Below, piece after piece: positions 12,784-22,223 of a DNA stretch of 64,000 nucleotides. Every line of letters starts with the position of its first letter. Positions within the stretch are counted from its first letter, which is position 1. The notes beneath the pieces are model-generated. The model was given only the letters and a program-made list of their open reading frames with translations, did no database searches and was not told the DNA's origin. The DNA is from Thiemannella venezuelensis (GTDB taxonomy: Bacteria; Actinomycetota; Actinomycetes; Streptosporangiales; Streptosporangiaceae), in the NCBI RefSeq assembly GCF_014203605.1, contig NZ_JACHJJ010000029.1, positions 1 to 64,000 on the forward strand. Reading direction: 5' to 3'. The position numbers were made by a program, and so were the translations under genes.

Positions 12784-13869
12784 ATGGCGATCGTTCACGT
12801 AGTGGACCGAGTGAAGGCGGGCCACGGCCGGGGGTTGAGCGCACTGGCGCTCGTCCGGGCCCAGCACCGGGCGGGGTGGAACGTGAGGCTGCTGGTCAGC
12901 GGGGTGCGCGACCCGGCGCTCCTGCCCGAGGGCCCCGCCGGTGAGGCGTTGTTCGATGACCGCACGGTGGACGTCTACCGGCGGGTCGAGGCGGTGGACC
13001 GGGTGGCGGCGGCGCTCGAGGTGAGGACCCGCCCAGGGGACGTCATCGTCAGTCACGAGGGCGTCGATCTGGCGGCCGCATGCCGGCTGAGGGGCCGCAG
13101 GGTCGTCGCGGCGGTCCACTCCGATCCCGGTGCCTGCCTGGGCTACCTGCCCCTGCCGGATCTGCGGGCGGCCGTCCGCCGGACCGATCACTGGGTCGCC
13201 TGGGGCAGGGCCGTTGCGGCGGGCCTCCACGATTCCCTGTCGGTCTTACCGGCCAGGACCACCGTGAGCGCCCAGGCCGTGGAGCCGGGCGGCCCCCGCC
13301 CGGTGCCCCTGCCGGGATCTCCGGCCTGCCTGAGCGTCGCGCGGGTGCACCCGGTGAAGAACCACGGGTTCATGCTCGAGGCGTGCGCCGTCCTGGCGGA
13401 GCGGTCACCGGGCACGCACTGGCACATGGTCGGAGGCTGCGACGATTCGGCCTATCTCCGGCGCCTCCGCAGGAACGCCGAGCGGCTGGGCGTCAGCCAG
13501 CGGATCACCTGGCACGGATACCGCGACGACGCGGGGGCGATGATGCTCGGCAGCGACGTCACCGTGCTGGCCTCGCACAGTGAGGGCGTGCCGCGGGCCA
13601 TCCAGGAGGCGATGGCGCTCGGCGTGCCGACGGTGATGCCCGGGTCCCTGGCCCGGGACCTCCTCCACGCCGGGTTGCCGGTGACCTATGAACCGGACGG
13701 GCCGGAGGCGCTGGCGCGGGCCGTCGAGGCCGCCCGCCTCGTCGGAACCGACCGGCTGGCGGCCGCCGCCGCCTGGACCGGCCGGACCTGGGCGTGGAGC
13801 CGGGTTCTCGGCGACTGGGCCCGTGTTCTGTCCCGGATCGGGGAGGAGGTCCCGGTTGCAGTCCTTTGA
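12784..13869 (+). CDS. Glycosyltransferase (GT4-like)
   Basis: This 361-residue GT-B fold enzyme starts MAIVHVVDRVKAGHGRG (glycine-rich N-terminal loop). The C-terminal donor domain has CLSVARVHPVKNHGFMLEAC, HMVGGCDDSAYLRRL, VLASHSEGVPRAIQEAMALG (the E-x7-E region) and GVPTVMP. It would transfer a sugar from a nucleotide donor; neither partner can be told. No membrane helix is visible. It is the first gene of a run of five overlapping genes and overlaps the ATP-grasp gene by 14 bases, so the two probably act on the same product. Confidence 0.85.
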   Translation: MAIVHVVDRVKAGHGRGLSALALVRAQHRAGWNVRLLVSGVRDPALLPEGPAGEALFDDRTVDVYRRVEAVDRVAAALEVRTRPGDVIVSHEGVDLAAACRLRGRRVVAAVHSDPGACLGYLPLPDLRAAVRRTDHWVAWGRAVAAGLHDSLSVLPARTTVSAQAVEPGGPRPVPLPGSPACLSVARVHPVKNHGFMLEACAVLAERSPGTHWHMVGGCDDSAYLRRLRRNAERLGVSQRITWHGYRDDAGAMMLGSDVTVLASHSEGVPRAIQEAMALGVPTVMPGSLARDLLHAGLPVTYEPDGPEALARAVEAARLVGTDRLAAAAAWTGRTWAWSRVLGDWARVLSRIGEEVPVAVL

Positions 13870-15082
13870 CACCTCGGTTCCCGCACTGGTGCTGAAAGTC
13901 GGTGAGTACGCGCTCCACCACGGCGGGCTGGCCGTCGCCCGCACGCTCGGCCGCCTGGGCATCCCCGTCTACGGCGTCCACGAGGACCGGTTCTCGCCCG
14001 CCGGTCTGTCGCGTTACGCCACCGGGCGGTTCGTGTGGCGGACCGGTGACCAGCGTCACTACCGGCGCCAGCTGCTGGACGGCATGGGCATGGTGGCCGA
14101 GCGGATCGGCCGCCCCGCCGTCCTGATCCCGACCGATGACCACGCCGCGCTGTTCGCCGCCGAGCACGCCGAGGTCCTGCGGGACCGGTTCCTCATCCCC
14201 GCGCAGGCGGCCTCCCTCGTCCGAGGGGTGATCGACAAGGCCGAGCTGCACGCGCGCTGCCGCGCCCTCGGCTTCGCCGTCCCCGAGGCCACCACGGTCA
14301 CCGGGGCGGACGGTCTCGCGTCGTTCGCCAGGACGGCGGCGTTCCCGGTGGTGGCGAAGCGGGCGGTGCCGCTCCTCCTCCCCGACGGACGCCGTGCGCG
14401 CAGCACCAGGATCGTCCGGGGACTCGGGGAGCTGCTGCGGCTCGACGTCTCGTCCGCACTGCTGCTCCAGGAGCACATCCCCGCCGAGCACGGCGAGGAC
14501 TGGCTGTTCCACGGGTACTGTGACGCGAGGTCGGAGTGCCCGGTGGCCTTCACCGGCCGGAAGCTCCGTTCGTTCCCGCCCGGCGCGGGCGAGACCGCGC
14601 TCGGCCGGTCGGAGCGGAACCCCGCCCTGGAGCACCAGGCGAGGTCGCTGCTGCGCGAGCTCGGCTACCGCGGCCCGGTGAGCATGGACTACCGGTTCGA
14701 CAGGAGAGACGGCCGGTACAAACTGCTCGACCTCAACCCCCGTGTCGGAGCGATCTTCCGGCTCTTCGCGACGGATTCGGGCCTGGACGTGGTCCGTGCC
14801 CTGCACCTCGATCTGACCGGGAGACCGGTGGTCGCCGGAGAACCGGTTGACGGCCGGGTCGTGATGGTCGAAAGTAACGACGTGCGCTCAGCATGGTCGC
14901 TGCTAAGGGCTCGGAGGCTCACCCCTCATGAATGGTGGTCCTCGTGGCGGGCGATCCACGAGACGGCGTGGTTCGCCCCCGACGACCTGGTGCCGCCGCT
15001 CGTGGCCCTCGCGCGCGCAGTCGCTCCCCGGCGCAGGAGAGCGGGCTCCGCACCGCCCCGCTACCTGCCGGGACGCGCATGA
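13856..15082 (+). CDS. ATP-grasp carboxylate-amine ligase-like protein
   Basis: This 408-residue ATP-grasp protein starts with TTG, with GGGGAGGAGG just upstream inside the glycosyltransferase gene. N-terminal pre-ATP domain: PALVLKVGEYALHHGGLAVA, RTLGRLGIPVYGVHED. ATP-binding part: VIDKAELHARCRALGFAVPE, PVVAKRA, LLLQEHIPAEHGEDWLFHGY. The metal-binding strand is LLDLNPRVGAIFRLF. Such enzymes join a carboxylate to an amine through an acyl phosphate. Similar ligases sit beside glycosyltransferases in actinobacterial surface-polymer loci. The nearby AsnB-like protein is a second amide-forming candidate. It overlaps the STAND gene (ATGA). Confidence 0.82.
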   Translation: MQSFDTSVPALVLKVGEYALHHGGLAVARTLGRLGIPVYGVHEDRFSPAGLSRYATGRFVWRTGDQRHYRRQLLDGMGMVAERIGRPAVLIPTDDHAALFAAEHAEVLRDRFLIPAQAASLVRGVIDKAELHARCRALGFAVPEATTVTGADGLASFARTAAFPVVAKRAVPLLLPDGRRARSTRIVRGLGELLRLDVSSALLLQEHIPAEHGEDWLFHGYCDARSECPVAFTGRKLRSFPPGAGETALGRSERNPALEHQARSLLRELGYRGPVSMDYRFDRRDGRYKLLDLNPRVGAIFRLFATDSGLDVVRALHLDLTGRPVVAGEPVDGRVVMVESNDVRSAWSLLRARRLTPHEWWSSWRAIHETAWFAPDDLVPPLVALARAVAPRRRRAGSAPPRYLPGRA

Positions 15083-18000
15083 GCACCACCGTCCGGGCAG
15101 AGGGGGCGGGTGCGATCGCGATCGGCGGCGACGCCATCAACAGCATCTTCGTCACGGGCGGCGCCAACCAGTTCTTCATCGGTCAGTATGAGCGGCTGGT
15201 GGAGGCCTATCTGAACCCCAGGGCGCTGTACCGCGAACTGCGGCTCGACCAGTTCACCGGACGGGCCTGGCTGCTACGGGCGATCGACGACTTTCTCGCC
15301 ACGAACGACCGCGGCTATCTCGTGATCGAGGCCGAAGCGGGCATGGGCAAGACCGCCTTCATGGCCTGGCTCGCGCGTGAACGACGCTACGTGCACCATT
15401 TCGTACGGCTCATGCCCGACGCCAACGACGTCGGGGTCGCGCTCCGGAACATGGCGGCACAGCTGATCCGCGCCTGGGACCTTCAGCCGATGGCGGTCGG
15501 CGGGGTGCTCCCCGCCAGCGCGTCCCGCCCCGACTTCTTCGAGGAGGTCGTCTACGAGGCGGCCGGGAAACGGGACGAGATCCGGCCGGGCGAGCCGATC
15601 GTCATCGTCGTGGACGGGCTGAACGAGACCGCTGCCCCTCCCGGCCGGAACCCGCTCGCCCTCCCGGTGGAGCTGCCCGAAGGCGTCTACGTCGTGGTCT
15701 CGCAGCGCACGGTGCACATCCCGCTCGCCGTGGCGACCCCGCGCCGGGTGCTCAGGATCCGGGCGGGCAGCCCCGAGAACCTCGCCGACCTCCGCGCCTA
15801 CCTGGAGACCGCGGTCACGGAACCCGCCCTGGCCGCGCGTCTGGCGGACGCCGGCGTCGCCCCGCAGGACCTCGTCCGGCAGCTGGTGACCCGCAGCGCC
15901 GGGGTCTGGCTGGTGCTGCGTTATGTGCTCGCGGAACTGCGCAACGGAACGCGGACGCCGGATGACCTGGGATCACTGCCCGTCGGTCTCTGGCACTACT
16001 ACGCGCGCTTCTGGAGCGAATGGCAGCGCACCCACGAGGACACCTGGCCAGAGATGGACCTGCCGCTGCTCGTCACGCTCACGGCCGTTCAGGAACCGCT
16101 GACCCTCGACGCGCTGTGCCGGTTGAGCGGGTTCCCGGACTCCGAGCGCGCGGCGAGACTCGTCGGCGACGCCTGGCGTCCCTTCCTCCAGGTCGAGGAA
16201 GGGACGCAGGAACGGTACGCGGCCTTCCACGACAGCTTGGGCGAGTTCGTGGCGGGAAAGATCGACTCCAGCGCCCTCACCAGTGCCGAACGGCCGTTCG
16301 TCGCGCGGTTGTCCGCAGCTCAGCGAGAGGCGCACGATCGCATCGCCGAGCGCTACCTGACCGCCTGGGGCGGCCTGGAGGGCGGGCTCCCCGGACTCCG
16401 CGGCGAGGTTGCGGACATGGACGGCGGCTACGGCCTGCGGCATGTCGTCCACCACCTCGCGGCCGCCGGGGCGGACGCCGTCCTCCACCGTCTGATGGAG
16501 CTGGAATGGCCGAGGGAGGAGGCCGTCGACCCCGTGGACGCCTCTCCCGCGGCCAACGCCTGGTACGAGGTCCACCGGGCCCGCCGCACGTTCGCCGGGT
16601 ACGCCCTGGACGTCCGGCGAGCCTGGGCGCGGGCCGAGAGGAGCGGGACGCTCGCCCTGGAGCTGCGCTACGCGCTCGTCGCCGCCTCGGTCAACAGCAT
16701 GGCCGGGAACGTTCCGAGCGAGTTGCTCCTGCTCCTCGTCGACAACGGCGTCGCCACGGCGGGGCAGGCCCTGGAACTGGCACGGGGGATCACCGAGCCC
16801 CAGGCCCGCGCCGAAGCCCTCACCGCCCTCCTGCCCGTGCTGACCGGCGAGACCCGTGCCGAAACGGTGCGCGAGGCCCTCGCCAGCGTGCAGCTCGTCC
16901 CGGACGGCTACTGGCGCGCGGGCGAGCTGGTTCGGCTGGCCCCCGCCGCAGGGCCCGACCACCGGGACGACCTGCTTCGCATCGCGACCGGCCTCAGCCG
17001 GGACTACGACCGCTCCATCTCGCTGCGTTTCCTGTCGGCGGAACCGGAGCGGCGCACCACGGAACCCGTTCCCACGGCTTTCAGCTTCGATCCGGCCGAC
17101 CCCCAGGTGTTCGCCGCCCAGTACCTCCAGCGGACGCGCAGGGGAGTGGCGACCCTCCTGCAGGGCATAGGCGCGGACCCCGGTGAGGAGACCTCCGCCC
17201 ACCGGCACGTAGCGGCCAGCCGCTTCGTCCGGGACCCCCGCTGGCGCGCCGAACTCCTGACGGCCTCGGCGCACACCGCGCCCAGCGACGCCCGTGGTGA
17301 CATCCTCAGGGCGGCGCTGAGCATCTCCCTGATGGCCGGTGACCGGGACGCCCTGAACGCCGCTCTCGCCTCGGTCGCCGCCCGCCTGGCCGCGGCCGGT
17401 GACGTCCCGGCCGCACTCGCCTGCATCTCGGAGATACGCGACCCGGAGGGCCTGACCCGGGCGCTCTTCGCCGTCTCCGCCCAGGCTCCGCCCCCGCAGC
17501 GCGCGGAGATCACCCGCCGCGCCGCCGGGACGGCAGGCAGGATCGCCGACCCGGCGGTCCGCGGGCAGATACTCCGCCAGCACGCGGCCCAGCTGGAAGG
17601 CGACCTCGACGACCTCCTCGGATCACTCGGCGCCGACTGGCGCGCATCGGTGTGGGCCGCGATGGGAGAGCGGAACCACGACGAGGACCTGCTGGCCAAG
17701 GCGCTCTCCACCGCCGTCGCCGCCACCGAGCCGGGACGGGCGAGGGTCATCGCCGAACTGATCCCCCACCTCCCCTCCCCGCTCCTCGCCACCGCCCACG
17801 CCGCCGTCGGCGCCCTCGAAGACCCCGAACAGCGCGACCACGGCATGACCGTCCTCGCCGCCCGCATGGGCGGTCTCGCCCGGCTCGGCGACCTGGACGG
17901 GATCGTCTCGTCGATTTCGGACGCGCACTGGCTCACGGAGGCGCTGTACCGGGCCGGGTGCGGGCTCGCAGCGGCCGGACAGGACGGCCCGGCGGCGCTG

Positions 18001-18624
18001 ATCGCCGCCCGGATAGCGTCGCCGCCGCACAGGGCCGAGGTGCTCGCGCGGGCCGGGCGGCCTGCCGAGGCGTTCGCGGTGGCCGACGGCTCGGCGGACC
18101 CGGGCGAGCGGATCGCCGTCCTGCTCCGGATCGGGGAGACGGGTGACCAGGACCGGGACGGCATCGCCCACGCGCGGACGGCACTCGCCGACGTCGGCGA
18201 TCCGGTGCTGCTGGCTCCGCTGGCCAACGCGGTCAGCCTCGCCCTGGCCGAGTCCGGGCGCCCGGAGGCGGCGCTCGACGTCGTCAGGATGCTGCCGGAG
18301 GAGAAGCGCGCCGCGGCGCTGGCCCCGCTGGCGCCGTACGCGGGAGACGCCGTGGGCGAGGCCGCGGGGCTCGCGCGGACGCTGCGCGATCCCGTCAGCC
18401 GGGCCCGCGTGCTCGCGGGACTGATGGGACCGCTGGTCGCGTCGGGAGCGCCGGACATCCAGGGCCATCTCCGTGAAACACTGCGCACGCTCGCCACGGG
18501 AACCCGGGCGCAGCTTCTCGAGGCGGTCCCGGACCTGCTGCCGGGGCTGGTGGAAGCGGCCGGCCTCCAGGGCCTGGCGGATCTGGGCGCGGCGATCACC
18601 TCGGCACACCGGTGGTGGCCGTGA
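15079..18624 (+). CDS. STAND-type NTPase with α-solenoid C-terminus
   Basis: A 1181-residue NLR-like protein. Residues 7-27 are a short Gly/Ile/Thr-rich segment (GAGAIAIGGDAINSIFVTGG) that resembles bacterial amyloid-signalling motifs. A helical linker leads to the NTPase: YLVIEAEAGMGKTAF with Walker A AEAGMGKT (85-92; Ala replaces the first Gly), Walker B PIVIVVDGLNE (173-183), then VYVVVSQRT (sensor-like) and a winged-helix-like region (LLVTLTAVQEPLTLDALCRL). From about residue 450 to the end the protein is helical, with TPR-like units such as ALELARGITEPQARAEALTA and AALACISEIRDPEGLTRALF, a likely sensor. No membrane helix. It overlaps the genes on both sides (ATGA, GTGA). Probable signal-sensing oligomerising switch; ligand and effector are unproven. 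Confidence 0.85.
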   Translation: MSTTVRAEGAGAIAIGGDAINSIFVTGGANQFFIGQYERLVEAYLNPRALYRELRLDQFTGRAWLLRAIDDFLATNDRGYLVIEAEAGMGKTAFMAWLARERRYVHHFVRLMPDANDVGVALRNMAAQLIRAWDLQPMAVGGVLPASASRPDFFEEVVYEAAGKRDEIRPGEPIVIVVDGLNETAAPPGRNPLALPVELPEGVYVVVSQRTVHIPLAVATPRRVLRIRAGSPENLADLRAYLETAVTEPALAARLADAGVAPQDLVRQLVTRSAGVWLVLRYVLAELRNGTRTPDDLGSLPVGLWHYYARFWSEWQRTHEDTWPEMDLPLLVTLTAVQEPLTLDALCRLSGFPDSERAARLVGDAWRPFLQVEEGTQERYAAFHDSLGEFVAGKIDSSALTSAERPFVARLSAAQREAHDRIAERYLTAWGGLEGGLPGLRGEVADMDGGYGLRHVVHHLAAAGADAVLHRLMELEWPREEAVDPVDASPAANAWYEVHRARRTFAGYALDVRRAWARAERSGTLALELRYALVAASVNSMAGNVPSELLLLLVDNGVATAGQALELARGITEPQARAEALTALLPVLTGETRAETVREALASVQLVPDGYWRAGELVRLAPAAGPDHRDDLLRIATGLSRDYDRSISLRFLSAEPERRTTEPVPTAFSFDPADPQVFAAQYLQRTRRGVATLLQGIGADPGEETSAHRHVAASRFVRDPRWRAELLTASAHTAPSDARGDILRAALSISLMAGDRDALNAALASVAARLAAAGDVPAALACISEIRDPEGLTRALFAVSAQAPPPQRAEITRRAAGTAGRIADPAVRGQILRQHAAQLEGDLDDLLGSLGADWRASVWAAMGERNHDEDLLAKALSTAVAATEPGRARVIAELIPHLPSPLLATAHAAVGALEDPEQRDHGMTVLAARMGGLARLGDLDGIVSSISDAHWLTEALYRAGCGLAAAGQDGPAALIAARIASPPHRAEVLARAGRPAEAFAVADGSADPGERIAVLLRIGETGDQDRDGIAHARTALADVGDPVLLAPLANAVSLALAESGRPEAALDVVRMLPEEKRAAALAPLAPYAGDAVGEAAGLARTLRDPVSRARVLAGLMGPLVASGAPDIQGHLRETLRTLATGTRAQLLEAVPDLLPGLVEAAGLQGLADLGAAITSAHRWWP

Positions 18625-19193
18625 CCCCCGGCTTCGAGCTGGTCGTCCACCACCGGTACGGGTCGGGGAGCTGCGCCGACCTCTCCGGGTACGCCAACGA
18701 CGGGCACGCGACGGCGGGGACGGCGGGAGCCGAAGGGATGCCGTTCGACGGCCGGAGCACCCGCGTCGTGGTGTTCCCCGCGCTGAGCCTCACCGACCTC
18801 GGGGGCATCCGGGCCCGGGCGCGGGTGCAGGTCGACGAGCTGGACGACCGGCGAACGATCATGGAGGGCTACCTCTCGTTCTCGTTCTCGGTCGAACCCG
18901 ACGGAGCGCTCTCCGGAAGCGTCTACACGGGCCTCGAATGGCACCTGATCAGGACAGGCCCGGGGGTGGTTCCCCGGCACCGCTGGATCGACGTGGGTTT
19001 CGTCTACGACGGACGGGATTCCGCGTCCCTCTCCCTGGACGGCCGGGTGGTGGCCTCCCGCCACGCGGACTTCGGCAGGATGGGCGGCGTCGAGTGGCCC
19101 TACGGGCTGAACATCGGCGCGTGGCCGGACGAGGCCGCCCGTGTCTTCAGCGGACGTATGGCGGAGGTCTGGTTGTGGCGGCTGAGTCGCTGA
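18621..19193 (+). CDS. LamG-like (concanavalin A-fold) protein
   Basis: This 190-residue protein is a single jelly-roll domain of the Laminin_G_3 type: FELVVHHRYGSGSCADLSGY, ANDGHATAG, MPFDGRSTRVVVF, RHRWIDVGFVYDGRDSASLS, LDGRVVASRHADFG and FSGRMAEVWLWRLSR. It has no signal peptide, so it probably works in the cytoplasm as a ligand-binding module. The GTG at 18621 overlaps the STAND stop (GTGA); other in-frame GTGs lie at 18612 and 18615. It overlaps the amidohydrolase gene by 19 bases, so these three genes look like one translated unit. Confidence 0.8.
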   Translation: MTPGFELVVHHRYGSGSCADLSGYANDGHATAGTAGAEGMPFDGRSTRVVVFPALSLTDLGGIRARARVQVDELDDRRTIMEGYLSFSFSVEPDGALSGSVYTGLEWHLIRTGPGVVPRHRWIDVGFVYDGRDSASLSLDGRVVASRHADFGRMGGVEWPYGLNIGAWPDEAARVFSGRMAEVWLWRLSR

Positions 19194-20245
19194 GACTGGA
19201 GGACTACGCGCCGCGGTCCGAGCTGGTCGTCCCCGAGACATCGGTGACGCGTCCGCGTTTCCCGGTGATCGACGCCCACAGCCATCTGGGCACGGAGTTC
19301 GGCGGCGGCTGGGACCGCCGCCCGGTCGGCGAACTGCTGGACGTCCTGGACGCGTCAGGTGTGGAACGCCTCGTCGACCTCGACGGCGGCTGGGACGAGG
19401 AGGTGCTCGACCGGCATCTGGCACTGTTCAAGGAGGCCGCCCCTGAGCGTTTCGCCTGTTTCGGCGGTGTCGACTGGCAGGCCTGGCCGGAACTGGGCAA
19501 CCGGTTCCCCGAGTGGGCCGCCGACCGGCTGGCCGCGCAGGTCCGCAGGGGCGCCCAGGGACTCAAGATCTGGAAGCCGTTCGGCCTGTCCGTGGCCGAT
19601 CAGCGCGGGTGCCGGGTGGCGGTCGACGACCACCGGCTCGACGTCCTCTGGGCGACCGCGGCCGAGCTCGGCGTGCCGGTGGTCATCCACGTCGCCGACC
19701 CCGTCGCCTTCTTCCGCCCCATGGACGAGCGCAACGAACGCTACGAGCTGCTGCGTGAGAACCCGCAGTGGCACGCGCTCCGGCCGGGGTTCCCCCCGTT
19801 CGAAACCGTGGTCGGTGAGCTGGCCTCGCTGGTCGCCCGGCACCGTTCGACGGTTTTCGTCGGGGCCCACGTGGGCTGCTACGCCGAGAACCTCGCGTGG
19901 GTGAGCGTGCTCCTCGACCGGTGCCCGAACTTCTACGTGGACCTGGCGGCACGCCTAGACGAGCTGGCGCGGCAGCCGTACACCGCCAGGCGGTTCGTCG
20001 TCCGGCATCAGGACCGGGTGGTGTTCGGCACGGACTGGCCCGCCGACGTGGGGATGTACCGTACCCACTACCGGTTCCTGGAGACCGATGACGAGCACTT
20101 CCCCGGCCCGGGAGGGGACCGCCCGGGGAAGAGCTGGCGGCTGACCGGGCTCCACCTGCCGGACGACGTCCTGGCGAAGGTCTACCGGGACAACGCCCTC
20201 CGCCTGCTGGGGCCCGCTAGTCCGCGGAGCGCGTCGTGGTCGTGA
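19175..20245 (+). CDS. Amidohydrolase family protein (Amidohydro_2, TIM barrel)
   Basis: This 356-residue metal-dependent hydrolase of the PF04909 type has FPVIDAHSHLGTEFGGG (HxH on strand 1), RRGAQGLKIWKPFGLSVADQ (Lys on strand 4), PVVIHVADPVAFFRP (His on strand 5), TVFVGAHVGCYAEN (His on strand 6) and VVFGTDWPADVG (Asp on strand 8). All expected metal and catalytic residues are present, so it is probably active in hydrolysis or decarboxylation. The GTG start has GCGGAGG 7 bases upstream. Its 3' end overlaps a convergent gene by 29 bases. The substrate is unknown; an amide product of the neighbouring ligases is one possibility. Confidence 0.83.
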   Translation: MAAESLRLEDYAPRSELVVPETSVTRPRFPVIDAHSHLGTEFGGGWDRRPVGELLDVLDASGVERLVDLDGGWDEEVLDRHLALFKEAAPERFACFGGVDWQAWPELGNRFPEWAADRLAAQVRRGAQGLKIWKPFGLSVADQRGCRVAVDDHRLDVLWATAAELGVPVVIHVADPVAFFRPMDERNERYELLRENPQWHALRPGFPPFETVVGELASLVARHRSTVFVGAHVGCYAENLAWVSVLLDRCPNFYVDLAARLDELARQPYTARRFVVRHQDRVVFGTDWPADVGMYRTHYRFLETDDEHFPGPGGDRPGKSWRLTGLHLPDDVLAKVYRDNALRLLGPASPRSASWS

Positions 20246-20630
20246 TCCTGCTGCCCGACACGTCCCGCCCGATCGCGACGGAACCCTGGCCGCTCGCCGT
20301 CACCGTCGTCACGGTTCCCGCGACCCCGGCGGACCTGGCCTCGTCGAAGATCCGCCCGATCTCCGCCGCCAGCCCGGGATCCTCCGCGAGCAGCTTCTTC
20401 AGCTGGACCTTCAGGACGGTCCGGAGCTCCTCGTCGTCGGGGTTCTCCGCCACGTCGTTGACGGCCTCGCTCGCCGCGGGCCTCTCCTCGACCCTGCCGC
20501 GCAGCCTTTCCCAGATCCTCTGGCCGAATCCGGGTCCTTCCTGCCCGCCGCCGTCTCCGGTTCCTGCGGCGATGTTCAGCAGCTGGGGCAGCAAAGGAGC
20601 GAGATACGAGACCAGCGCAGCGATGTCCAT
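20217..20630 (-). CDS. Small protein with C-terminal amyloid-like motif, likely partner of the STAND NTPase
   Basis: I do not recognise a named family for this 137-residue protein. Residues 1-22 (MDIAALVSYLAPLLPQLLNI) are a hydrophobic helix; residues 24-36 are Gly-rich; residues 37-100 are charged and helical (RIWERLRGRVEERPAASEAV, LKVQLKKLLAEDPGLAAEIG). Residues 113-133 read SGQGSVAIGRD, then VSGSRITTTT. They match the N-terminal motif of the STAND NTPase at the G-G-A-I-G-D-S-T positions. In bacterial NLR/effector pairs the effector carries the motif at its C-terminus and the NLR at its N-terminus, as here. GGGGTAGG precedes the ATG. It is divergent from the AsnB-like gene (81 bases). Confidence 0.7.
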   Translation of the reverse strand: MDIAALVSYLAPLLPQLLNIAAGTGDGGGQEGPGFGQRIWERLRGRVEERPAASEAVNDVAENPDDEELRTVLKVQLKKLLAEDPGLAAEIGRIFDEARSAGVAGTVTTVTASGQGSVAIGRDVSGSRITTTTRSAD

Positions 20631-20711
20631 GTCCTACCCCACCGGATGGATTCGGCCTACGGCCATCCAGTCTACGCAGGCGCTCCGGCGCCCGGACAGG
20701 AGTTGGCGACG

Positions 20712-22223
20712 ATGGCGGGAATCTTCGGGCACATCCGGTTCGGTGTCCCGGACCTCCCCGCCACCGCCACCGCCACCACCACCGCCTCCTTCGACGGCGA
20801 CACCTCCGCCGTCTGGGATCCCCGCGGTCAGACCCTGCGCCTGACCTGCGACCGCCTGGGCTCGAACCCGCTGTACTACCACCTCACCGGGGACGGCGTG
20901 CTGTTCGCGTCCCGGCCGGAGGCGATCCTCGCCCACGTCGACCCGGTCCTCGACCTGGACGGCCTCCGCAAGGCCCTGGCCTTCACCCTCAGCGTTCCCG
21001 GCGTTCCCTGGAGCGGGATCTCCGGGGTCGCGCCGGGCACCACCACGACCGTCACCCCCTCCGGTGTGAGGACGGAGACCTACTGGAGACTGACGGCCCG
21101 CGAGCACACCGACGACCTCGCCACCACCGTGGCGAACATCCGGGACCTGCTCACCGACGCGGTGCGCAGCCGGCCCGTCCGCGCCGCGCTGCTCTCCGGC
21201 GGCCTCGACTCCAGTCTGCTCACCGCGCTCGCCGGAACCCGGCTTCACACCTACGACGTGGACTTCACCGGCTACGAGGACCACTTCACCGCAGATGACG
21301 AGCGCGCGGCCCCCGACGCCCCCTATGCCGCCGAGGCGGCGGCCCACCTGGGCACCCTCCACCGCACGGTCGGCCTGACCCCCGCCGCGCTCGCGGACCC
21401 GGACCTGCGCAGAACAGTGGTCCGCGCCTACGGGATCCCGCCCGGCTGGGGCGACCGGGACCGCTCCGCCTACCTGCTCTACCGCTCGGTCCGTGAGGAC
21501 TTCCCGGGTGCGCTCTCGGGCGAGGCGGCCGACGAACTGTTCGGCGGCTACGCCGTGTTCTTCGATCCCGTGATCCACCGGGCCCGGACCTTCCCGTGGG
21601 TCGCGACCGGCTACACCACGTACGGGCCGGTCTCCGAGGCCCTGCGTCCGGAACTGCGGCTGGACCTCCCGGGCCACCTGGCCGGCGAGTACGCCCGTTC
21701 CGTCTCCGAAGTCGAGTGCCTCGACGGCGAGGACGAGGGCGAGCGGCGGATGCGGACCGTCGCCCACCTGTACCTGACCAGGGCGCTGCCGGTGCTCCTC
21801 ACCCGCAAGGACCGTCTGAGCAGGGCGGCCGGGCTGGACGTCCGGCTGCCCTTCGCCGACCACCGGCTGGTCGAGTACGTCTACAACGTCCCGTGGTCGA
21901 TGAAGACCTTCGACGGCCGGGAGAAGAGCCTGCTCCGCGCCGCCGCCCGCGGTCTGCTGCCGCCTTCGGTCCTGGGCCGCCTGAAGACCGCCTTCCCGTC
22001 GATCCGGCATCCCGCGTACTCGGCGGCGCTCGCGCGTCAGGCGGCCGAGCTCGCGGCCGAAGCCGGTCACGCCGTGTTCGCGATCGCGGACCGGTCCTGG
22101 CTCGGCGCCGTCGGGCGGCGGGACGCCCGCTCCATGCCGGCCCGGACCCGCAACACCCTGGAGTGGATCCTCAACCTGGCCGCCTGGCTGGAGCTGTACC
22201 GCCCGACGCTACGCCTGCCCTGA
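20712..22223 (+). CDS. Asparagine synthetase-like amide synthetase with inactive glutaminase domain
   Basis: This 503-residue AsnB-like protein starts MAGIFGHIRFG, where working enzymes have MCGI: the catalytic Cys is Ala. The N-terminal domain is also about 60 residues shorter than in AsnB before the landmark CDRLGSNPLYY. The synthetase domain looks intact: PPi loop LLSGGLDSSLL, SGEAADELFGGY, LTRKDRLSRAAGLDVRLPFA and REKSLLRAAARGLLPPSVLG. It probably uses free ammonia or another amine to amidate a carboxylate, as do β-lactam synthetase and lasso cyclases, but no lasso genes are near. AGGAG lies 9 bases before the ATG. An in-frame ATG at 20646 would hide the MAGIFG start. Confidence 0.82.
   Translation: MAGIFGHIRFGVPDLPATATATTTASFDGDTSAVWDPRGQTLRLTCDRLGSNPLYYHLTGDGVLFASRPEAILAHVDPVLDLDGLRKALAFTLSVPGVPWSGISGVAPGTTTTVTPSGVRTETYWRLTAREHTDDLATTVANIRDLLTDAVRSRPVRAALLSGGLDSSLLTALAGTRLHTYDVDFTGYEDHFTADDERAAPDAPYAAEAAAHLGTLHRTVGLTPAALADPDLRRTVVRAYGIPPGWGDRDRSAYLLYRSVREDFPGALSGEAADELFGGYAVFFDPVIHRARTFPWVATGYTTYGPVSEALRPELRLDLPGHLAGEYARSVSEVECLDGEDEGERRMRTVAHLYLTRALPVLLTRKDRLSRAAGLDVRLPFADHRLVEYVYNVPWSMKTFDGREKSLLRAAARGLLPPSVLGRLKTAFPSIRHPAYSAALARQAAELAAEAGHAVFAIADRSWLGAVGRRDARSMPARTRNTLEWILNLAAWLELYRPTLRLP

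What the first reader, a model, noticed from the sequence alone, without database searches (positions are those of the whole stretch)
20712..22223. AsnB-like synthetase with Cys-to-Ala nucleophile and shortened glutaminase domain
The protein begins MAGIF instead of MCGIF and reaches the DRxGxxPLYY landmark about 60 residues early, so the glutaminase site is lost both by point change and deletion. The synthetase domain keeps the PPi loop (SGGLDS) and the ADELFGGY motif. Enzymes with this pattern (β-lactam synthetase, lasso cyclases) use an internal or external amine. No lasso precursor, leader-binding or protease genes are near, so the product is unknown.
Basis: seen in the sequence. Interest (0 to 1): 0.6.

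Follow-up and report, generated by a model that had tools for sequence, protein, structure and literature searches.

The report
Glutaminase-less amide synthetase in cell-death cassette
A soil bacterium carries an amide-making enzyme that has lost the part which normally frees ammonia from glutamine, and its gene belongs to a recurring gene set that looks like a bacterial immune-receptor and cell-death switch; relatives show the loss at successive stages.

Summary
It does not group with beta-lactam synthetases or lasso cyclases: the closest solved structure is the trichostatin hydroxyamidotransferase TsnB9 (Z 46.8), with AsnB and beta-lactam synthetase tied far behind (Z about 25).

The main new evidence is context. 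The gene belongs to a cassette found in seven genomes: an NLR/STAND-like NTPase, a small protein sharing a terminal motif with it (the BELL/amyloid-signalosome layout) and a LamG protein, plus, variably, an ATP-grasp ligase, amidohydrolase, glycosyltransferase and this AsnB. The five cassette AsnBs form one clade (100/100), ordered by glutaminase decay: intact, intact, full-length but dead, truncated, truncated. Seven residues invariant in 32 intact relatives are lost in the three decayed ones; an acceptor-loop motif (GDRDRS) found only in cassette AsnBs is kept in all five.

Most likely it is an ATP-dependent amide synthetase that still acts on the cassette's own acid but now takes free ammonia or a small amine. 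Substrate, product and any link to cell death are inferred.

The parts
20712..22223 (+). AsnB-type amide synthetase with Cys-to-Ala and a glutaminase domain shortened by about 95 residues (503 aa)
20698..20702 (+). Shine-Dalgarno-like AGGAG, 9 nt before the ATG
20217..20630 (-). 137-aa small protein, divergent to the synthetase; hydrophobic N-terminus; C-terminal motif shared with the NTPase (BELL-like putative effector). No Pfam, NCBIfam or PADLOC hit
20238..20309 (-). shared amyloid-signalling-like motif at the C-terminus of the small protein
   Evidence: score 54, 0 of 500 shuffles reach it
15079..18624 (+). NLR/STAND-like P-loop NTPase, 1181 aa (weak Avs1b, AAA_16 and NACHT similarity, all below cut-off)
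15085..15156 (+). matching motif at the N-terminus of the NTPase
18612..19193 (+). LamG/concanavalin-A-like protein (PF13385, 31.5 bits, cut-off 27.6), present in all seven cassettes
19175..20245 (+). amidohydrolase (PF04909, 73.1 bits, cut-off 26.4); start uncertain (GTG 19175 proposed); in four of seven cassettes
13856..15082 (+). ATP-grasp ligase; start uncertain (TTG 13856 or GTG 13823); in the same five cassettes as the AsnB
12784..13869 (+). GT4 glycosyltransferase (PF13692 best; also PF20706 GT4-conflict, 29.2 bits, cut-off 26); in three of seven cassettes

Best explanation
The protein is an ATP-pyrophosphatase-type amide synthetase of the AsnB/TsnB9 line. It activates a carboxylate as the acyl-adenylate in the intact C-terminal domain and forms an amide with free ammonia or a small amine taken from solution, because the glutaminase that once supplied ammonia has been lost in steps. 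Its acid substrate is probably not aspartate but one specific to the cassette, the same before and after the glutaminase was lost. It works beside an ATP-grasp ligase as the chemical arm of an NLR-BELL-LamG cassette. Shown by sequence: the cassette, the clade, the order of decay, intact catalytic residues, a confident fold. Inferred: that the enzyme is active, its amine donor, its acid, its partnership with the ATP-grasp enzyme, and any role of the product in immunity or cell death.
For: Catalytic synthetase residues invariant in 36 rows; AlphaFold2 model pLDDT 89.7, pTM 0.90, weak only at residues 13-24; TsnB9 fold Z 46.8, rmsd 1.6 over 460 residues. The five cassette AsnBs are one clade at 100/100, and inside it intact G022, intact G696, dead G072 and the two truncated ones branch off in that order (99/89, 100/100, 100/98). 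Seven residues invariant in 32 of 32 intact rows (K52, E68, K70, V266, M371, E376, V379) differ in window, L005 and L059; they were picked because window and L005 differ, but L059's loss of all seven and their retention in both intact cassette AsnBs were not selected for. Residue 51, V or I in 32 of 32, is S, E, G. Residues 51, 52 and 376 align with human Val-141, Arg-142 and Glu-414, of the ammonia tunnel and its gate (PMC11615228 passages). L015, decayed independently (Cys to Ser), has lost 51, 52, 266, 371, 376 and 379 too. GDRDRS in the acceptor loop: 5 of 112 collected AsnB-like proteins, exactly the cassette ones. AsnB and ATP-grasp: both in 5, neither in 2 of 7 cassettes (Fisher p 0.048). 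Wild-type human ASNS uses free ammonia at kcat 0.59 per s.
Against: No activity is shown. K52 to R (L005, L059) and E376 to D (window, L005) are conservative, and the gate residue is Ile in E. coli AsnB. D241, D in 31 of 32 intact rows and possibly a substrate contact, is Gly in the three decayed proteins, so the acceptor pocket may have changed as well. The AsnB/ATP-grasp link rests on 7 related loci. In Actinomadura soli the cassette seems reduced to broken AsnB and ATP-grasp pieces, so the arm is dispensable. Two of seven cassettes have no AsnB. Constraint on residues 1-32 is weak (pN/pS 0.78).
Confidence: 0.6

Rival explanations
1. Ammonia-dependent housekeeping asparagine synthetase: the only PF00733 protein of the genome makes asparagine from aspartate and ammonia.
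For: It is the only PF00733 match in the genome and AsnA is absent.
Against: GatB is present, so asparagine can be made on tRNA. By the alignment the human segment DITTVR reads GIPPGW here, so an acidic and an arginine position are both gone; PMC8554201 says that Asn-making enzymes conserve an Asp-binding D and R (passage; that these are those two positions is my inference). Cassette synteny and the cassette-only GDRDRS loop do not suit a housekeeping role.
Confidence: 0.07
2. Intramolecular cyclase like beta-lactam synthetase, carbapenam synthetase or a lasso cyclase, using an amine of the substrate itself.
For: These also lack a working glutaminase, and their folds match (Z 22-24.5).
Against: AsnB matches as well as they do (Z 24.7-25.6) and TsnB9 far better (46.8). 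Lasso and albusnodin/ikarugamycin models are far below cut-off; beta-lactam synthetase is not among the six sequence matches at E 0.001. The nearest ancestors are intact glutamine-type enzymes.
Confidence: 0.1
3. Synthetase fed in trans: a separate glutaminase or a cassette enzyme such as the amidohydrolase releases the amine.
For: The amidohydrolase lies next to the two truncated AsnBs.
Against: The amidohydrolase is absent beside the dead AsnB of G072 and present beside the intact one of G696 and in G213, which has no AsnB, so it does not track glutaminase loss. Tunnel-side residues are lost.
Confidence: 0.1
4. Pseudoenzyme or decaying gene: the protein only binds ATP or acid as a sensor of the NLR system, or is on its way out.
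For: Glutaminase decay, weak constraint at the N-terminus, broken copy in A. soli.
Against: All catalytic synthetase residues kept, pN/pS of the synthetase part 0.41, intact frame in two genera.
Confidence: 0.13

Closest known systems
TsnB9, trichostatin A-forming hydroxyamidotransferase (PDB 7YLZ)
   Same: Closest solved structure by sequence (E 1.1e-110) and fold (Z 46.8, 42% identity over 460 residues); same synthetase residues; acts on a free carboxylic acid with ATP (relatives: PMC13418202 passages).
   Different: TsnB9 has a full N-terminal domain and takes the nitrogen unit from glutamyl hydroxamate; the window protein has no such domain. TsnB9 falls outside the cassette clade (its own place weakly supported, SH-aLRT 21). 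No TsnB6/TsnB7 genes were seen beside the window gene.
Glutamine-dependent asparagine synthetase AsnB/ASNS and mDAP-amidating AsnB/LtsA
   Same: Same two-domain ancestry and PP-loop chemistry.
   Different: No glutaminase site; tunnel and gate positions altered; TIGR01536 score 211 is below the cut-off 267, whereas the intact cassette AsnB of L006 scores 463.
Beta-lactam synthetase, carbapenam synthetase, lasso cyclases
   Same: AsnB-fold enzymes without working glutaminase.
   Different: Only as similar in fold as AsnB is; lasso models far below cut-off; their glutaminase loss is separate from the one traced here (inference; they were not in the tree).
BELL/NLR amyloid signalosomes of filamentous bacteria (BASS motifs)
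   Same: Adjacent genes for an NLR-like NTPase with the motif at its N-terminus and a small protein with the motif at its C-terminus (PMC7889193 and PMC8086366 passages).
   Different: Published descriptions seen here speak of two-gene clusters; here LamG is constant and ATP-grasp, AsnB, amidohydrolase and GT4 are recurrent additions. BASS profile models were not available.

Membership tests
Glutamine-hydrolysing AsnB (TIGR01536) | score above curated cut-off | tested here: not met
   211.4 of 267.1 bits
Glutamine-hydrolysing AsnB (TIGR01536) | N-terminal Cys nucleophile and full glutaminase domain | tested here: not met
   MAGIF, about 95 residues missing
Glutamine-hydrolysing AsnB (TIGR01536) | PP-loop synthetase domain with catalytic residues | tested here: met
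   PF00733 231 bits; invariant residues
TsnB9-type hydroxyamidotransferase | fold and sequence of the synthetase domain | tested here: met
TsnB9-type hydroxyamidotransferase | N-terminal domain that hydrolyses glutamyl hydroxamate | tested here: not met
   domain largely deleted
TsnB9-type hydroxyamidotransferase | amidooxygenase genes (TsnB6/TsnB7) nearby | tested here: inconclusive
   none among the eight neighbouring genes scanned with Pfam; not searched by sequence
Lasso cyclase (NF033535, NF033561) | score above curated cut-off | tested here: not met
   89 of 525 and 65.7 of 300 bits
Lasso cyclase (NF033535, NF033561) | precursor, leader-binding and protease genes nearby | tested here: inconclusive
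   none in the Pfam scan; short ORFs not searched
Beta-lactam/carbapenam synthetase | closer to these than to AsnB in fold | tested here: not met
   Z 22.0-24.5 against 24.6-25.6 for AsnB/ASNS and 46.8 for TsnB9
Beta-lactam/carbapenam synthetase | catalytic dyad and acceptor pocket | not tested
   no superposition of side chains was made
BELL/NLR amyloid signalosome (cassette) | shared motif at NLR N-terminus and small-protein C-terminus of neighbouring genes | tested here: met
   7 of 7 loci, 0 of 500 shuffles reach the score in each
BELL/NLR amyloid signalosome (cassette) | NLR/STAND NTPase | tested here: inconclusive
   AAA_16 20.5 of 32.6, NACHT 15.8 of 26.7 bits; Avs1b E 2.6e-4; Walker-like motifs seen by eye
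BELL/NLR amyloid signalosome (cassette) | BASS family profile and BELL domain | not testable with these tools
   no such profiles in the libraries; no Pfam hit at E 10
BELL/NLR amyloid signalosome (cassette) | amyloid templating and cell death | not testable with these tools
   needs experiment

The most novel reading that the evidence does not exclude
A bacterial NLR-BELL amyloid cell-death system carries its own chemistry: a paired ATP-grasp ligase and glutaminase-less amide synthetase make (or modify a cell-surface glycan into) an amide that the LamG/NLR arm reads as self or alarm, so that free ammonia or amine level, no longer buffered by a glutaminase, is itself part of the signal.
Probability: 0.12. 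Interest if true: 0.85.

Novelty: new variant of a known kind. Interest (0 to 1): 0.6.

Why it matters
It gives a natural series (intact, intact, dead, truncated, truncated) in one clade and one gene neighbourhood for how a glutamine-dependent enzyme sheds its ammonia-producing half while keeping the other, and the same tunnel positions fall in an independent case. It also puts amide-forming enzymes beside a bacterial NLR/BELL-type pair, which makes the question of what such receptors sense open to a chemical test.

Tried and rejected
An upstream start restoring the glutaminase: rejected. Lasso or beta-lactam assignment: rejected as above. Defence-system libraries: PADLOC finds only weak Avs1b similarity for the NTPase and nothing for the six other cassette proteins. 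The conflict-system paper PMC7159879, searched for five terms, holds none of LamG, amidohydrolase, ATP-grasp, asparagine or GT4. More distant relatives of the NTPase do not carry the cassette: nine stretches of 11.6-20 kb held (L118-L123 and L125 of the family, L142 of the class; tblastn with all seven cassette proteins) show the NTPase alone in each of the eight named. The remaining weaker family hits (G004, G029, G268, G269, G316) were not fetched. Plasmid records hold only distant NTPase matches (15 records, none covering 80%). The ATP-grasp fold search gave only generic ATP-grasp enzymes (biotin carboxylase, PurK, ligase RizA; TM 0.46-0.60), so its substrate stays open; its relatives at 40-48% identity are common (109 of 341 family genomes at E 1e-15) and those seen in six stretches lie mostly among glycosyltransferase, polysaccharide-deacetylase-like or flavoprotein genes read by eye. 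The literature searches for this combination listed no paper on an AsnB or ATP-grasp gene in an NLR/BELL cassette; subscription papers, the original BASS paper (Dyrka et al. 2020) among them, were not available, so absence from print is not claimed. Papers: passages only of PMC7889193, PMC8086366, PMC12261475, PMC11615228, PMC13418202 and PMC8554201; all others listings only.

Counting notes. Tree: window and 60 loci chosen by me out of 111 other non-duplicate AsnB-like proteins; rows were chosen for spread, and the fragments and most Clostridia rows were left out. Letter make-up of L005 and L059 is flagged as odd and L171 as long. Alignment A1: 36 rows, of which 32 counted as intact (window, L005, L059, L015 left out). 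Of 18 proteins without a Cys motif in the set of 112, one is the window itself, several are fragments or contig ends (L041, L054, L055, L170), L051 was not looked into and L008 is unreadable at that position. The genome searches list only part of their matches.

Full report
Observation. The ORF at 20712-22223 codes for 503 residues. AGGAG lies 9 nt before the ATG. PF00733 covers residues 143-494 at 231 bits; GATase_7 matches only with its last 44 positions. In 36 aligned relatives the PP-loop, E271, D274, K405 and R409 never vary. Of 94 relatives with a Cys start, 40 have 127 and 13 have 128 residues before the point where the window's conserved part begins; the window has 32. The missing part is thus about 95 residues. 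The N-terminal strand (MAGIFGHIRFG, against MCGIAGWV-F in intact proteins) and the last hairpin of the domain remain.

The truncation is real and shared. Actinomadura sp. NBRC 104412 (L005; the same place as G281:C19) has the same form, MADLFGRIRFG, 65% identical. Between window and L005 pN/pS is 0.46 for the gene and 0.27-0.52 for six neighbours.

What kind of enzyme. By sequence the best solved match is TsnB9 (E 1.1e-110), then human and E. coli AsnB (E about 1e-12 to 5e-11), CarA last (4e-4); beta-lactam synthetase is not among the six matches. The AlphaFold2 model (36 rows, pLDDT 89.7, pTM 0.90) superposes on TsnB9 with Z 46.8 and 1.6 A over 460 residues; AsnB/ASNS come at 24.6-25.6 and beta-lactam and carbapenam synthetases at 22.0-24.5, which is a tie (Foldseek agrees). 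Curated models for AsnB (211 of 267 bits), lasso cyclase (89 of 525) and albusnodin/ikarugamycin cyclase (66 of 300) are all missed. Several intact relatives (L090, L092, L049) lie in gene sets with PhzF-family and anthranilate-synthase-like genes (the family scan covered L090 and one gene of L049), and TsnB9 itself serves a natural product, so the wider group amidates varied acids.

The cassette. Upstream of the gene lie GT4, ATP-grasp, a 1181-aa P-loop NTPase, LamG and amidohydrolase on the same strand, and a divergent 137-aa protein. tblastn with these seven proteins shows the NTPase, LamG and small protein together in seven genomes: window, G281, G072, G696 (an Acidimicrobiia MAG, L006), G022, G069 and G213. 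AsnB and ATP-grasp are both present in the first five and both absent in the last two (Fisher p 0.048, related loci). Amidohydrolase is in four (window, G281, G696, G213), GT4 in three (window, G281, G069). In the family of 341 genomes 18 have an NTPase match at E 1e-30; the six with the cassette are the six best. Outside the family the best NTPase match (E 2.9e-86, G444) has no cassette neighbour in 18 kb. Flanks outside the cassette differ between window and L005, where it begins 66 bases after a tRNA-Val in a run of nine tRNA genes (start of GT4 by alignment).

NLR-BELL layout. Published bacterial amyloid signalosomes put one motif at the N-terminus of an NLR and at the C-terminus of a small BELL protein encoded next to it (PMC7889193 and PMC8086366, passages). 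I aligned the last 45 residues of the small protein with the first 75 of the NTPase in each of the seven loci: scores 54-79, against shuffled means of 22-28, and 0 of 500 shuffles reached the score in each. The motif reads like GSVAIGRDVSGSxI / GAIAIGGDAINSIFVTG. The NTPase itself is only weakly like known STAND proteins (Avs1b E 2.6e-4; AAA_16 and NACHT below cut-off), the small protein has no family hit, and no BASS profiles were on hand; so the layout is met, the family membership is not proven.

Decay in order. A tree of 61 synthetase domains (IQ-TREE) puts the five cassette AsnBs on one branch, 100/100, in all of 200 bootstrap trees. Inside, G022 and then G696 split off with intact-looking glutaminase motifs (Cys, RGPD, SGEVYN or SGEIYN, SDTE), then G072 with a full-length domain that has Gly for Cys and lost those motifs, then window and L005, truncated. 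Judgement of intact or dead is by motif, not by assay.

Tunnel. I listed positions conserved in at least 88% of 32 intact rows at which both window and L005 differ: 15 positions, seven of them invariant in all 32. All seven also differ in L059 and are kept in L006 and L067, which was not a condition. Residue 51 (V or I in all 32) is S, E and G. By the alignment 51, 52 and 376 correspond to human Val-141, Arg-142 (tunnel gate) and Glu-414 (PMC11615228, passages). L015, a separate Cys-to-Ser case in another part of the tree, has lost 51, 52, 266, 371, 376 and 379 but keeps 68 and 70. Against: K52R and E376D are mild, and E. coli has Ile at the gate.

Acceptor side. GDRDRS, in the loop aligned with the human stretch before Met-344, is in 5 of 112 collected proteins, exactly the five cassette AsnBs, intact and decayed alike; it is also in the A. 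soli fragment (frame 0). This argues that the acid stayed the same while the nitrogen source changed. Against that, D241 (D in 31 of 32) is Gly in the three decayed proteins. The Asp-binding arginine of asparagine makers, if it is the one in DITTVR (inference), is Trp here.

Host. The genome has one PF00733 protein, no AsnA, and GatB.

Erosion. In Actinomadura soli one contig end carries ATP-grasp residues 4-254 directly abutting AsnB residues 115-185, in different frames (L203), and another carries AsnB from residue 208 with a further frame break (L041); no close NTPase is in that genome. Either the cassette has largely been deleted there or the assembly is at fault.

Conclusion. Confidence that the protein is a glutaminase-less amide synthetase descended from glutamine-dependent ones is high (about 0.85); that it works with ammonia or a small amine on a cassette-specific acid, about 0.6; that the product bears on the NLR/BELL pair is open.

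Noticed in passing
L090, L092, L049: Intact relatives of this AsnB lie with PhzF-family, anthranilate-synthase-like and isochorismatase-like genes, a phenazine-like cluster; they may be carboxamide synthetases.
   Followed up: partly
L171:9013-10790: Another AsnB-like gene (G501) with Cys-to-Ser and a frame break between the glutaminase remnant and the synthetase domain.
   Followed up: partly
L013, L015: Amycolatopsis arida and Streptomyces hirsutus: full-length AsnB-like proteins with Cys-to-Ser, one clade, independent of the cassette.
   Followed up: partly
L050, L052, L057: Three Holdemania AsnB-like proteins show no Cys start; in L050 the N-terminal domain was seen to be unlike the usual one.
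   Followed up: no
alignment A1, column of SGEVYN: The position of the Asn in NGEIYN of usual AsnB is Ser or Thr in 28 of 36 rows of this group; it may mark a changed glutaminase specificity.
   Followed up: no
L203:91-1048, L041:1-835: Actinomadura soli carries broken pieces of the cassette: ATP-grasp abutting AsnB out of frame.
   Followed up: partly
L005:1054-1982: In Actinomadura sp. NBRC 104412 the cassette begins just after a run of nine tRNA genes, a possible insertion site.
   Followed up: no
G000:C3:198368-199540 (L204): Paralogue of the cassette ATP-grasp (44% identity) near glycosyltransferase and flavoprotein genes in the same genome.
   Followed up: no
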